Shown here one piece after another: positions 6,134 through 12,529 of a stretch of DNA of 64,000 nt. How positions within the stretch are numbered: the stretch's first letter is position 1; the number at the start of each line of letters is the position of its first letter. Position numbers and translations under genes: made by a program. The stretch is from IMG/VR virus record IMGVR_UViG_3300042691_012617, positions 1 to 64,000 of that record; one strand, given 5' to 3'. This DNA is from a virus. The notes beneath the pieces are model-generated. The model did no database searches, was not told the origin of the DNA, and saw only the letters and a program-made list of their open reading frames with translations.

Positions 6134-6823
6134 ATGACTGTCAGAGAGTCATTGATCGGCTCTGCGATTGCTGCGGCACTCGCAGTCACACCCGCAAACG
6201 CTGAGTTTGTCGTGGTCAACAATCCCCTTTTTTATGAGACGGGCAACTACTCAGATGCCTTTGGAACCAACGGCACAACTGAGTACAGAACGAGTTGGGC
6301 ACAACAGTTCACGCTCAATCAGGAATACACCCTATCGTCTATTCGATGGTGGGGTGGAGTGAACGGATTCTTTGGTGACGGAATCCAAAGCATCACGGGC
6401 TTTCAAGTGATTGTTTGGAATCAGGATTTCACCCAACAGGTTCGCAGCATCAATCTGAGTGTGGGCGACTACACCATGACTGATAGCGGTACCGACAACT
6501 TCTTTGGGCAGGATGTGTATACCTTCTATACGCCTGTCTCGTTGCAGTTGGATGCAGGAACCTACAACATGAACATTGGTGCTTGGTATGCCGATGCAGG
6601 AGTAGCACACGATCAGTTCGTGTGGAGTACGGGGCAGCACTCCTCCAACGGCATGCCGACTTACTACACCGAAAACGCTAGTGTCTTTGGTGTTTGGGGT
6701 CAATGGCATGAGTACATTGGGGGTTCTTTCAATGCGGGTGGTGCAATGGTTCTTTCTGCGCCAACCCCTGGGGCTATCGCTCTTCTTGGTCTTGCGGGAC
6801 TATTCGGTCGCCGCCGTCGATAA
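6134..6823 (+). CDS. Secreted protein with PEP-CTERM-like sorting tail
   Basis: 229 residues. The ATG at 6134 follows AGGAG and starts a clear signal peptide (SLIGSAIAAALAVTPANA, cleavage after about A23). The body is beta-rich with many Asn, Thr and Trp and no Cys. The last 20 residues read PTPG, a hydrophobic GAIALLGLAGLFG segment, then RRRR: a short PEP-CTERM-type signal for exosortase processing and surface attachment. This tail is common in planctomycete secreted proteins. In a phage it implies host-surface delivery of a phage product, or capture of a host gene. A strong terminator follows. The sorting role is by analogy; no exosortase gene is in the window. Confidence 0.75.
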   Translation: MTVRESLIGSAIAAALAVTPANAEFVVVNNPLFYETGNYSDAFGTNGTTEYRTSWAQQFTLNQEYTLSSIRWWGGVNGFFGDGIQSITGFQVIVWNQDFTQQVRSINLSVGDYTMTDSGTDNFFGQDVYTFYTPVSLQLDAGTYNMNIGAWYADAGVAHDQFVWSTGQHSSNGMPTYYTENASVFGVWGQWHEYIGGSFNAGGAMVLSAPTPGAIALLGLAGLFGRRRR

Positions 6824-6846: not shown

Positions 6847-6876
6847 GAACCCCTGTCGCAAGACGGGGGTTCTTTT
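6847..6876 (+). terminator. Intrinsic terminator after PEP-CTERM-like gene
   Basis: An 11-bp stem (GAACCCCTGTC / GACGGGGGTTC) with a GCAA tetraloop is followed by TTTT. Confidence 0.8.
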
Positions 6877-6877
6877 C

Positions 6878-6884
6878 ATAAATA
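6878..6884 (+). promoter_or_regulatory. T4-type late promoter
   Basis: ATAAATA immediately follows the terminator. It would transcribe 6972-8290 with a leader of about 80 bases ending in AAGGAGG. Confidence 0.55.
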
Positions 6885-6971: not shown

Positions 6972-7175
6972 ATGGAACAGAAATCAGGAACCAAGACAAC
7001 GGAGTTTTGGGTAGCACTTGCACCCGTACTGATCGGGCTGATCGAAGGACAAAAAGGTGACGCGGAAAACAGTCGTTACCTCATCGTCTGTGGCACGGCA
7101 TTGGGGTGCATGTACATCGCAAGCAGAACGCTACTCAAGATGAAACCACCAACTCAAACAGAGGAGAGCAAATGA
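6972..7175 (+). CDS. Small two-segment membrane protein, holin-like candidate
   Basis: 67 residues behind a strong AAGGAGG ribosome site. There are two hydrophobic segments, about residues 10-25 (TEFWVALAPVLIGLIEG) and 37-57 (YLIVCGTALGCMYIASRTLL). The KTTEFW...ASRTLLK architecture recalls small phage membrane proteins often labelled putative holins, but the same shape exists outside lysis cassettes. No endolysin is next to it. It overlaps the cohesin-like gene by ATGA, so the two are translated together. A membrane anchor or export partner for that protein is an alternative. Late promoter upstream. Confidence 0.6.
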   Translation: MEQKSGTKTTEFWVALAPVLIGLIEGQKGDAENSRYLIVCGTALGCMYIASRTLLKMKPPTQTEESK

Positions 7176-8290
7176 CGCAAGTAGATCCAAACAGAACATT
7201 CAAGATCGCAATACATTCCGACCATAGCAATTCAAGATGGAACGGAAGTAACTTGAACGGGAAGACCGCAGTCAAGGGGGATATCATCGAAGTCAACATT
7301 CATATGACTCCGAACCCATCTGCTCCCGTCAATGGTGTTACCAAGCAGATGTATGCATTGTTTCGCAGCGCAGATGTCTTGCTGAAATACGATCCCACGA
7401 AACTGGAACTTGTAAATGCGAGTGCAAATCCACGCTCTACCGACAAAGCGATCATCGATGTCTCTCGCATTTCAGCGACCGTGATCGACAACGGCATCAT
7501 CAAGTTTCATAGTCGCGTCTATCCGCCGCCACAGAGAGCAAACTTCTATTGGGAGTTTGGTGGATATAAGTTGATGGGAGGTGCGCGAAATCTAGGTGTT
7601 GTTCGTTTCCGTGTATTGGATGACTTCTACTTCCCGACCGTGCAGACAACAAACATTGATATTCTCCCCGAAGCACAGATAAACGGTGCAGTAGTAAAGA
7701 CATTCGTTGACGGAAGCCCGACTCCCAATACCAACATGGTCGATCCAAACATGGAAGACAATGTCAATCGGATCAAGTTCGGCCCTCGTCCCGATTACAA
7801 GATGAAGGTGACAATGACTCCTCCGTCTGTTGTGTCGGTTGGCAGCGAGTTCTCGGTGCCCCTGACAATCGAAAGTCTTACTTCACCTCAATGGTTCTCA
7901 TCGGTCACGGCAATTCTGATATGGGATCCGACTAAGATCGAACTCATGGGATTGGATAAGACGGGTGCAAAGGTTGCTCAGATGTCGGGATTCCTTTGGG
8001 GATGTCCGACATGCCTCAACGAGACAAAGGTTCCGAAAGACGGAAACGCCCAATTCATGTTCCTTAACCAACTCGGCAACATGACTCCTGTCTCTCAGCC
8101 GACACTCCTCGGAACCTTGAAGTTCAAGGCGGTCAGCCAGTTTGATGAGACCGCCATCGAAGTCGTAAAGATGAATGACCCCCGTTTGGCGGGACTATCC
8201 ATCATCGATGACACGGGAATTATCACAGGGACGAGTGCCAGTTGTGAGGAAATCTACGGAACTGTTATCAAGGGATGGAAAGTCCCATAA
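7172..8290 (+). CDS. Protein with two cohesin-like modules
   Basis: 372 residues from the ATG at 7172 (ribosome site GAGGAG). Two related beta-sandwich modules are visible. Module 1 (about residues 10-165) has KGDIIEVNIHM, then SADVLLKYDPTKLELVNA, then LGVVRFRVLDD. Module 2 (about 210-355) has VGSEFSVPLTIESL, then VTAILIWDPTKIELMGL, then LLGTLKFKAVS. The order 'VGxxFxVxVxV... LxYDPxxLEL... GxLxFK' is that of cohesin domains. There is no signal peptide, so it may be a virion component or be released by lysis. Cohesins bind dockerins, which occur on some planctomycete surface proteins; an adhesion role is inference. A terminator follows. Confidence 0.7.
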   Translation: MTQVDPNRTFKIAIHSDHSNSRWNGSNLNGKTAVKGDIIEVNIHMTPNPSAPVNGVTKQMYALFRSADVLLKYDPTKLELVNASANPRSTDKAIIDVSRISATVIDNGIIKFHSRVYPPPQRANFYWEFGGYKLMGGARNLGVVRFRVLDDFYFPTVQTTNIDILPEAQINGAVVKTFVDGSPTPNTNMVDPNMEDNVNRIKFGPRPDYKMKVTMTPPSVVSVGSEFSVPLTIESLTSPQWFSSVTAILIWDPTKIELMGLDKTGAKVAQMSGFLWGCPTCLNETKVPKDGNAQFMFLNQLGNMTPVSQPTLLGTLKFKAVSQFDETAIEVVKMNDPRLAGLSIIDDTGIITGTSASCEEIYGTVIKGWKVP

Positions 8291-8327: not shown

Positions 8328-8364
8328 CCCCCTCCCATCTTCACAGGGAGGGGGTTGCTTTTTT
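8328..8364 (+). terminator. Intrinsic terminator after cohesin-like gene
   Basis: CCCCCTCCC (8328-8336) pairs with GGGAGGGGG (8346-8354), followed by TTGCTTTTTT. A smaller GTGGG...CCCAC repeat (8302-8320) precedes it. Confidence 0.8.
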
Positions 8365-11020: not shown

Positions 11021-11239
11021 ATGAACAAGAACCCATCGTCCAAGGATTTCGCAATCGTCGTTCTCGTCGCATCTGCGATCTCATTCACGCTCGTCTCGCT
11101 GCTATCGGCGGGATATCTCGCGCTCTACCACTTCCTCCGCGACCACTTCGGTCTCGGGTTTTGGCAAGTTGTGTTCCTGTATGCAATCGTCGTGACAGGA
11201 CTCAGCGCGATCACCGTGGTCAACAGATCAAGTCGCTGA
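11021..11239 (+). CDS. Small two-pass membrane protein
   Basis: 72 residues; AAAGAAACTC precedes the ATG. Two hydrophobic segments, about residues 9-33 (FAIVVLVASAISFTLVSLLSA) and 45-66 (FWQVVFLYAIVVTGLSAITVV), are joined by a short basic/His loop. It ends RSSR and overlaps by 12 bases the 3' end of the convergent lipoprotein gene. A holin-like shape is possible, but no lysis partner is seen. Function unknown. Confidence 0.55.
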   Translation: MNKNPSSKDFAIVVLVASAISFTLVSLLSAGYLALYHFLRDHFGLGFWQVVFLYAIVVTGLSAITVVNRSSR

Positions 11240-12175
11240 CGGCGGCTCGGATGGTTGAACGCTAGAAGGGGTACGGAGTGCTTTCCGTGCCTCCTCTAGT
11301 TTTTTGAATCCGTTCTGTTCCTTGATCTTGGCGATGATTTCCTTCGTCAGGTCTGACTGTACCTGTGCAGCGACTCCTTCAGGACCGAAGATTCTTCGCT
11401 GCTCATCGTCGGTCATCGTCTCCTTGAGGATCTGAATCATCTCCACGATCTCGCGGATGGCGGTGGCGTTTCTCTTGCTGTTCACCGTAGACCAAACGAT
11501 CATGGCAATCGCTGAGAGGAAGCCAAGGACTAGAAGTATCGCACCGACAAGAGCGATTTCTTCCATGTAGTACTGCGATGCTGAGGCAAATCCAATCATG
11601 AGAAGACCTATGAAAGCAAGCGATCCACCATATGTCTTGTTGAGGAAGAAGGCGACCGCTGCACCACCCGCGATCAGTAGAAACCCGATGACCCAAAACA
11701 TACTGATGTAGCCGTACAACTTCTCCATGGCTCTGACCTTCGTTTCATCCAACATGACCTGAAGGCTCGTCAGCGACTTCTCCAATTGATTGACTTCGGC
11801 AGTCAGTTTGTTCAACTTATCGGTCTCTCGCTGTAGATCGTCAGCGGCCTCAATAATGTTGGTAGCCTTGCTGTCAATCCGTGTCAGCGCGTCAGCCGCC
11901 GTATTGACCTCTGTAGCCTTCGGGGCGGGGGAGGGGGTCACAGAGCGGGTGGAGGGAGCGGGTGCCTGTAGAGCCAATCCCTGCCTCACAGTAGCGGTCT
12001 CCTGAAGGATCTGTTCTGCGTCTCGCTTGATGTCCCCTATCGAATCCTGTGCATGGTCGATAACCGAACTGAGAGCGGCAGAAGAAGCCCCCGTGGATGG
12101 GGTGACAACTGGTGTGGTCTTACAAGCGGTCAGCGCGAATACAGCAAGACACATGAGCGAATGCAATACTTTCAT
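11228..12175 (-). CDS. Phage lipoprotein with coiled coil and three membrane segments
   Basis: 315 residues. The ATG at 12175 begins a lipoprotein signal with lipobox LTAC (Cys18). A Pro/Ser/Thr-rich linker and a coiled coil (about 95-150) follow, then three hydrophobic segments (about 156-178, 183-203, 206-228), and a charged helical tail ending in Pro/Ser. A lipid anchor plus membrane helices is unusual; it might span the envelope. The late motif CTAAATA (12181-12187) places the predicted transcript start on the A of this ATG. An in-frame upstream ATG (MDTHRLNTD added) has a weak AAGAG site and is the alternative start. Candidate roles are lysis or superinfection exclusion; none is shown. 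Confidence 0.6.
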   Translation of the reverse strand: MKVLHSLMCLAVFALTACKTTPVVTPSTGASSAALSSVIDHAQDSIGDIKRDAEQILQETATVRQGLALQAPAPSTRSVTPSPAPKATEVNTAADALTRIDSKATNIIEAADDLQRETDKLNKLTAEVNQLEKSLTSLQVMLDETKVRAMEKLYGYISMFWVIGFLLIAGGAAVAFFLNKTYGGSLAFIGLLMIGFASASQYYMEEIALVGAILLVLGFLSAIAMIVWSTVNSKRNATAIREIVEMIQILKETMTDDEQRRIFGPEGVAAQVQSDLTKEIIAKIKEQNGFKKLEEARKALRTPSSVQPSEPPSAT

Positions 12176-12180
12176 ATCGG

Positions 12181-12187
12181 TATTTAG
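12181..12187 (-). promoter_or_regulatory. Late promoter, leaderless layout
   Basis: CTAAATA on the minus strand, then CCGAT, then the ATG of the lipoprotein gene (12175). With T4 spacing, the first transcribed base is the A of ATG. Confidence 0.5.
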
Positions 12188-12217
12188 CCGATGAGTATCC
12201 ATGCATAAACACTCTTT

Positions 12218-12529
12218 ATGTCTAACTCCAAACCCAATCAAAAGCGTGAACACATCAAGACGCACATTTACAGGATGGGTGGGGAAGTGTCCCCTGTGTT
12301 GGTATTCCGCGTCAGCACGAAGGACACCAATAGATACGAGAAGGAGGGATGGGAAGAAGTTCTCATGACCTTCAGGCATGATGGAGAAGCACTCCACATC
12401 CGCTACACAGGAATTCGAACAGAAAGAGTACAGAATGCCGCGCCGAACAGCAATCGTGAAACCAAAAAGACCGAAGGCATCAACCCCCTCACTAAAGCCT
12501 TCCGACAGGCGTTCTCGTTCTTCCGTTAA
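12218..12529 (+). CDS. Small hypothetical protein
   Basis: 103 residues, divergent from the lipoprotein gene. MSNSKPNQKREHIKTHIYRM is basic; the middle has VLVFRVSTKDTNRYEKEGW and a following beta segment; the tail is Arg/Lys-rich. There is no ribosome site before the ATG. The sequence could be a small nucleic-acid-associated protein, but nothing identifies it. Its 3' third overlaps a second, very basic reading frame (12435-12572), and only one of them may be used. Confidence 0.45.
   Translation: MSNSKPNQKREHIKTHIYRMGGEVSPVLVFRVSTKDTNRYEKEGWEEVLMTFRHDGEALHIRYTGIRTERVQNAAPNSNRETKKTEGINPLTKAFRQAFSFFR

What the first reader, a model, noticed from the sequence alone, without database searches (positions are those of the whole stretch)
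7172..8290. Double cohesin-like protein in a phage, without signal peptide
Two internally similar modules show cohesin core order (SADVLLKYDPTKLELV / VTAILIWDPTKIELMG). Cohesins bind dockerins on cell-surface or secreted proteins. The gene is late, coupled by ATGA to a small membrane protein, and not secreted by Sec, so it could be a virion adhesin or be released at lysis. A cohesin-dockerin contact for phage adsorption or biofilm attachment would be new to me.
Basis: partly seen in the sequence, partly recalled or inferred. Interest (0 to 1): 0.75.

Follow-up and report, generated by a model that had tools for sequence, protein, structure and literature searches.

The report
Phage-encoded cohesin with matching dockerin protease
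A T4-like virus, probably of planctomycete bacteria, carries a protein made of two 'cohesin' sockets and, elsewhere in the same genome, a protein-cutting enzyme that ends in the matching 'dockerin' plug; this plug-and-socket system is known from bacterial surface enzyme complexes but I found no report of it in a phage.

Summary
ORF 7172-8290 (372 aa) is a double cohesin: Pfam Cohesin 34.7 bits (cut-off 24.1), modules homologous to each other, predicted fold matching solved cohesins (Z 11.3). The interpretation needs changing. (1) The same 168-kb T4-like phage record encodes, outside the window (153129-154196, minus strand), a trypsin-fold serine protease ending in a type I dockerin with both calcium loops intact. 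(2) Relatives of this protease lie in seven other phage contigs and keep the catalytic triad; two of them also carry the cohesin, 0.7 and 3.2 kb away. (3) Seven further phage contigs carry the double cohesin; six of these have a signal peptide by eye, so the window's lack of one is an exception. (4) The best cellular relatives found are Phycisphaerae proteins (signal peptide-cohesin-dockerin or -PEP-CTERM-like tail), from genomes with tens of dockerins; related lake bacteria were proposed to tether peptidases this way ('planctosome'). I commit to a phage-borne cohesin-dockerin protease system, used outside the cytoplasm or at lysis. Whether the two phage proteins bind each other or host partners is untested.

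The parts
7172..8290 (+). Double-cohesin protein P0001, 372 aa, no signal peptide
   Evidence: PF00963 34.7 bits, two stretches; fold match to cohesins Z 11.3; seven homologous phage contigs
7184..7774 (+). Cohesin module N (residues about 5-201)
   Evidence: 17.2 bits alone; structural match residues 8-200 to 2jh2, Z 11.3, rmsd 2.4
7790..8287 (+). Cohesin module C (residues about 207-372)
   Evidence: 21.5 bits alone; homologous to N module, hhalign E 8e-10, and to 12 of 12 Phycisphaerae cohesin loci
6972..7175 (+). 67-aa protein with two hydrophobic segments, stop overlaps the cohesin start (ATGA)
   Evidence: sequence and ORF list; no family match
6134..6823 (+). Secreted protein with PEP-CTERM-like tail (SAPTPGAIALLGLAGLFGRRRR); homologue sits directly upstream of the cohesin gene in phage contig L242
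   Evidence: 53% identity with the tail conserved; synteny in L242; no PEP-CTERM HMM hit
6847..6872 (+). Terminator-like hairpin between the PEP-CTERM-like gene and the cohesin operon
6876..6883 (+). CATAAATA, T4-like late promoter motif upstream of the TM gene and cohesin
   Evidence: sequence; motif enriched upstream of ORFs in this phage, 24 of 153 against 1.2 expected
8328..8354 (+). Hairpin CCCCCTCCC/GGGAGGGGG followed by a T run, likely terminator of the cohesin gene

Best explanation
The protein is a two-socket cohesin scaffold belonging to a phage-borne cohesin-dockerin protease system of phages that probably infect Phycisphaerae (Planctomycetota). SHOWN by computation: it is a double cohesin; the same phage encodes a trypsin-fold serine protease (intact His-Asp-Ser triad) with a C-terminal type I dockerin whose two calcium loops are intact; the two genes co-occur in three phage records and are close neighbours in two; the C module is closest, among what I could search, to Phycisphaerae cohesins that sit beside dockerins or PEP-CTERM-like tails. 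INFERRED: both are made late. The cohesin protein is exported in most phages and kept until lysis in this one. The protease, which has no signal peptide in any relative, leaves the cell at lysis or on virions. Outside, its dockerin plugs with calcium into a cohesin, most likely the phage's own (up to two proteases per scaffold), which concentrates proteolysis at the planctomycete surface, whose own proteins are organised by the same plugs and sockets, and so helps envelope breakdown, release or the next attack.
For: Double cohesin. Dockerin: PF00404 at 32.2 bits (cut-off 22.9), E 2.3e-8, 30.4 bits; loops DINQDGVVDGADL and DMDGDGKVDGIDL. Protease: H97, D136, S224 invariant in seven dockerin-bearing and two dockerin-free relatives; chymotrypsin fold Z 14.5, the listed rows are of that fold. 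Selection: dN/dS about 0.09 for P0002 against L088. Pairing: of the dockerin-protease contigs, G005 and G007 also carry the cohesin; in G007 the order is cohesin-thyX-dockerin protease on one strand. Mobility: G007 shares few other genes with G000; in G002 the protease gene is 82% identical with GC 0.51 in a 0.38 genome. Cellular relatives: 46 of 397 genomes of the class of a MAG titled Phycisphaera mikurensis hit the C module, best 1e-17, with cohesin-dockerin or cohesin-PEP-CTERM-like layout. Published 'planctosome' proposal (PMC6461901).
Against: No binding was or could be tested. In five of eight dockerin-protease contigs no cohesin was found, including one of 147 kb, and five of eight cohesin contigs have no dockerin protease in the DNA held (several are fragments). 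In this phage the genes are about 21 kb apart if the ends join, on opposite strands. With the cohesin exported and the protease cytoplasmic in L092 and L098, they could meet only after lysis. The host is inferred; only one class was searched widely.
Confidence: 0.45

Rival explanations
1. Host-directed mimicry: the phage cohesin binds the host's many dockerin proteins and the phage dockerin protease plugs into host surface cohesins, so the phage hijacks, feeds on or blocks the host's cohesin-dockerin complex (peptide supply during infection, or superinfection exclusion). The two phage proteins need not bind each other.
For: 24-73 dockerin matches per likely-host genome and host cohesins of the same type; dockerin protease present without a detected phage cohesin in a 147-kb record; exported cohesins in six phages; planctosome peptidase model (PMC6461901).
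Against: The protease has no signal peptide, so it cannot join a host complex before lysis unless exported by another route; close linkage of cohesin and dockerin genes in two phages is better explained by a phage-internal pair.
Confidence: 0.33
2. Virion adhesin: the cohesin decorates the virion and binds surface dockerins for adsorption.
For: This copy and L111 lack a signal peptide; late-type promoter motif upstream.
Against: Six of eight family members carry an apparent signal peptide; the gene lies outside the tail/head block; no fusion to a virion domain.
Confidence: 0.1
3. Cohesin fold without dockerin binding: the modules bind another ligand (for example a glycan) or are carried-over host surface protein, and the dockerin in the protease is only a calcium-stabilised tail.
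For: Single modules score below the Pfam cut-off; no cellular relative of the N module was found among the loci tested.
Against: Co-occurrence and linkage with a dockerin gene in three phage records; both dockerin loops conserved in seven of eight; dockerin-free protease relatives suggest the dockerin was added.
Confidence: 0.12

Closest known systems
Cellulosomal scaffoldins and type I cohesin-dockerin pairs (Clostridium, Acetivibrio)
   Same: Tandem cohesins in one protein; separate enzyme with a C-terminal type I dockerin with two calcium loops; cohesin fold
   Different: Phage genome; enzyme is a serine protease, no glycoside hydrolase or carbohydrate-binding module found; this scaffold lacks a signal peptide
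Proposed 'planctosome' of freshwater Phycisphaerae (PMC6461901)
   Same: Cohesin/dockerin modules in the same bacterial class, proposed to tether peptidases
   Different: Host-encoded, Zn peptidases (M12B, M14) rather than an S1-type serine protease; itself a hypothesis
Phycisphaerae signal peptide-cohesin-dockerin and signal peptide-cohesin-PEP-CTERM-like proteins (loci L211-L222)
   Same: Best cellular matches to the C module
   Different: One cohesin with a dockerin or sorting tail; the phage protein has two cohesins and neither tail
S1/chymotrypsin-fold proteases (e.g. V8, Esp, plasmin)
   Same: Triad and fold of the dockerin partner
   Different: No signal peptide, dockerin tail; Pfam Trypsin only 12.4 bits

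Membership tests
Cohesin domain (PF00963) | Profile score over curated cut-off | tested here: met
   34.7 bits against 24.1 for the whole protein; single modules 17.2 and 21.5; relative L092 C module 29.1
Cohesin domain (PF00963) | Cohesin fold, N module | tested here: met
   Z 11.3, rmsd 2.4, 124 residues to 2jh2; cohesins fill the top rows
Cohesin domain (PF00963) | Cohesin fold, C module | tested here: inconclusive
   Low pLDDT over much of residues 265-372; sequence homology to N module and to cellular cohesins
Cohesin domain (PF00963) | Binds a dockerin | not testable with these tools
   No complex prediction or binding assay available
Scaffoldin / cellulosome | Several cohesins in one polypeptide | tested here: met
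   Two modules, hhalign E 8e-10
Scaffoldin / cellulosome | Dockerin-bearing enzyme in the same genome | tested here: met
   P0002, PF00404 32.2 bits, protease fold of relative L090
Scaffoldin / cellulosome | Cellulase or other glycoside hydrolase and carbohydrate-binding module | tested here: not met
   No such domain in P0001 or P0002
Scaffoldin / cellulosome | Signal peptide for export | tested here: not met
   None in P0001 by eye; present by eye in six other phage family members
Type I dockerin (PF00404), P0002 | Profile score and two calcium loops with Asp/Asn at 1, 3, 5, 9, 12 | tested here: met
   30.4-32.2 bits; loops read; conserved in A2, one loop degenerate in L098
S1-type serine protease, P0002 | Catalytic triad and chymotrypsin fold | tested here: met
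   H97, D136, S224 invariant; Z 14.5 (relative L090 modelled)
S1-type serine protease, P0002 | Pfam Trypsin cut-off | tested here: not met
   12.4 bits against 20.6
PEP-CTERM protein (window 6134-6823) | PEP-CTERM HMM match | tested here: not met
   No NCBIfam match to it; tail resembles Phycisphaerae tails by eye

The most novel reading that the evidence does not exclude
Phages of planctomycetes have taken over the host's cohesin-dockerin language as a mobile, self-contained kit: a two-cohesin scaffold plus a dockerin-tagged serine protease that assemble outside the cytoplasm into a phage-made proteolytic complex, the first cohesin-dockerin machine made by a virus.
Probability: 0.4. Interest if true: 0.88.

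Novelty: new variant of a known kind. Interest (0 to 1): 0.74.

Why it matters
Cohesin-dockerin pairing is known from bacterial and archaeal surface complexes. Both halves in one phage, with the dockerin on a protease, would extend it to viruses and give a direct handle on two open questions: what the many non-cellulosomal dockerins of planctomycetes do, and how phages deal with planctomycete surfaces. The pair is small and easy to test.

Tried and rejected
Named phages: no match to P0001, P0002 or the dockerin stretch in 50,697 records, apart from chance hits at E 2-10. Single-sequence scan of IMG/VR with P0001 found nothing; alignments were needed. Cohesin alignment in genome contigs found nothing. 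GDP-mannose dehydratase did not point to a host: best hits about 55-60% in many phyla. PDB sequence search with P0001 or its alignment: no relative. A2 matched cellular genomes essentially only in the dockerin part, so no cellular parent of the protease domain was found. Six cohesin loci from other genomes outside that class search (L193-L198) gave no match to the phage C module, a small control only. The 745-, 811- and 950-aa proteins checked as possible cohesin or dockerin carriers have none. Papers: searches for phage with dockerin, cohesin or PEP-CTERM returned nothing relevant to phage-encoded pairs; the library is open-access only.

Full report
What is there. Window 7172-8290 (+) encodes P0001, 372 aa. 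It reaches the Pfam Cohesin cut-off as a whole protein (34.7 bits, cut-off 24.1, two stretches). Each module alone is weaker (17.2 and 21.5 bits), which probably explains why the six-frame family search of the record did not report it. The two modules are homologous to each other (hhalign E 8e-10). AlphaFold2 with four phage sequences gave a modest model (mean pLDDT 60, pTM 0.52), yet the best PDB matches are cohesins by Foldseek and by VIA (Z 11.3, rmsd 2.4, 124 residues; nearly all of the first 42 rows are cohesins). That match covers residues 8-200, the N module; the C module's fold was not tested well, but its sequence matches cellular cohesins.

Genome. The window is part of a 168,426-base virus record. 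The major capsid protein is Gp23 (E 7e-149), and the closest named phages by that protein are Methylophilales phage Melnitz and Pelagibacter phage Mosig at about 63-64%. So this is a T4-like myovirus. [CA]TAAATA, the T4-type late promoter core, lies 8-60 nt before 24 of 153 ORFs against 1.2 expected, including the capsid gene and the dockerin gene; CATAAATA lies at 6876-6883 before the 67-aa membrane gene that is coupled to the cohesin gene by ATGA.

The partner. A scan of all ORFs in the record for calcium-loop motifs found a dockerin at G000:C1:153129-154196 (-), P0002, 355 aa. PF00404 scores 32.2 bits against a cut-off of 22.9. Both loops, DINQDGVVDGADL and DMDGDGKVDGIDL, have the calcium ligands. 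The rest of P0002 is a trypsin-like protease: ISPRHALICQHF, GPDLTLLEF and GDSGSP supply H97, D136 and S224, invariant in the seven dockerin-bearing sequences of A2 and also in two dockerin-free relatives. Pfam Trypsin is only 12.4 bits, but the predicted fold of relative L090 matches chymotrypsin-fold proteases (Z 14.5). dN/dS between P0002 and L088 is about 0.09. No relative has a signal peptide by eye. All dockerin-bearing members end in KPR plus one residue after a variable linker, unexplained.

Distribution. The dockerin protease occurs in seven further IMG/VR contigs; the dockerin passes the Pfam cut-off in six of them, and in L098 one loop is degenerate. Two more contigs have the protease without dockerin (L099, L100), which suggests the dockerin was added to an older phage protease. 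The double cohesin occurs in seven further contigs (L092, L098, L111, L240-L243). Both genes are in the window's record, in G005 (3.2 kb apart) and in G007 (cohesin, thyX, protease in a row). In L090, a close relative of this phage, the protease sits a few kb from the capsid and tail-tube genes, the neighbourhood where the window has its cohesin. G002 is an otherwise different phage with GC 0.38 whose protease gene has GC 0.51 and 82% identity to P0002: horizontal transfer. Five of eight protease contigs have no detected cohesin and five of eight cohesin contigs no detected protease; many are fragments, but the 147-kb G002 is not small.

Export. L092, L098 and L240-L243 cohesins begin with a signal-peptide-like stretch, judged by eye. 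P0001 and L111 do not. P0001 also lacks the 40-50 residues that follow the signal in its relatives, so this looks like a real N-terminal loss rather than a missed start.

Host and cellular relatives. The phage cohesin alignment matched 46 of 397 genomes in the class of a MAG titled Phycisphaera mikurensis, best E 1e-17, in the C module. The matched proteins are mostly signal peptide-cohesin-dockerin or signal peptide-cohesin-PEP-CTERM-like tail. Seven genomes of that class hold 24-73 dockerin matches each. The gene just upstream of the cohesin operon encodes a secreted protein with the tail SAPTPGAIALLGLAGLFGRRRR; its homologue in phage L242 (53%) keeps this tail and lies directly upstream of the cohesin, and L111 and G002 encode other proteins with such tails. 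These point to a Phycisphaerae host, but I did not search other classes to the same depth and have no spacer evidence.

Mechanism. Freshwater Phycisphaerae were proposed to build a cohesin-dockerin complex that tethers peptidases ('planctosome', PMC6461901). The phages seem to use the same vocabulary: a two-socket scaffold and a dockerin-tagged protease. I think the most likely function is local proteolysis at the host surface once the protease leaves the cell, with the phage cohesin as its socket; hijacking of host sockets and plugs is nearly as likely. Binding, protease activity, location and host are not shown.

Novelty. I found no cohesin, dockerin or such pair in named phages or in the open literature searched. 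The parts are known; the combination in phages is the new element.

Noticed in passing
window 6134-6823; L111:501-1142; L242:9083-9763; L225 from 11001 (+): Phage-encoded secreted proteins with PEP-CTERM-like tails (for example PTPGAIALLGLAGLFGRRRR); the tail is conserved between window and L242 although no HMM matches.
   Followed up: partly
L006:9129-10196 (-), and relatives L088-L093, L098: Dockerin proteases all end in KPR plus one residue after a variable Pro/Thr-rich linker; meaning unknown.
   Followed up: partly
L005:17090-17432 (-): Phage-encoded tmRNA with tag ANKQTRRYALAA in a tRNA cluster.
   Followed up: no
L006 and neighbouring loci, e.g. G000:C1 146021-147249, 151903-152232, 162322-164218: Many proteins begin with MKxFxxxIxEA-like sequences that recall the capsid-targeting N-termini of T4 internal proteins.
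   Followed up: no
L100:10001-11239; L099:7812-8780: Dockerin-free relatives of the protease with an intact triad; in L100 it sits next to a gp46-like gene.
   Followed up: partly
L092:81-734 (-): End of contig G005 encodes a SecA C-terminus that looks betaproteobacterial; possibly a chimeric contig end.
   Followed up: no
G002 (L223-L230), protease gene at G002:C1:104030-105109: Protease gene GC 0.51 in a genome of GC 0.38, 82% identical to P0002: transfer between different phages.
   Followed up: yes
L002:16362-18326 (-): Ribonucleotide reductase with B12-dependent-type domains; ThyX at G000:C1:103430-104110, and ThyX lies between cohesin and dockerin protease in L098.
   Followed up: no
window 11228-12397 (-): Lipobox-bearing protein with coiled coil and several hydrophobic segments, conserved in L090; function unknown.
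   Followed up: no
L211-L214, L218-L220, L222: Phycisphaerae proteins that fuse one cohesin and one dockerin in a short secreted polypeptide, which could chain.
   Followed up: partly
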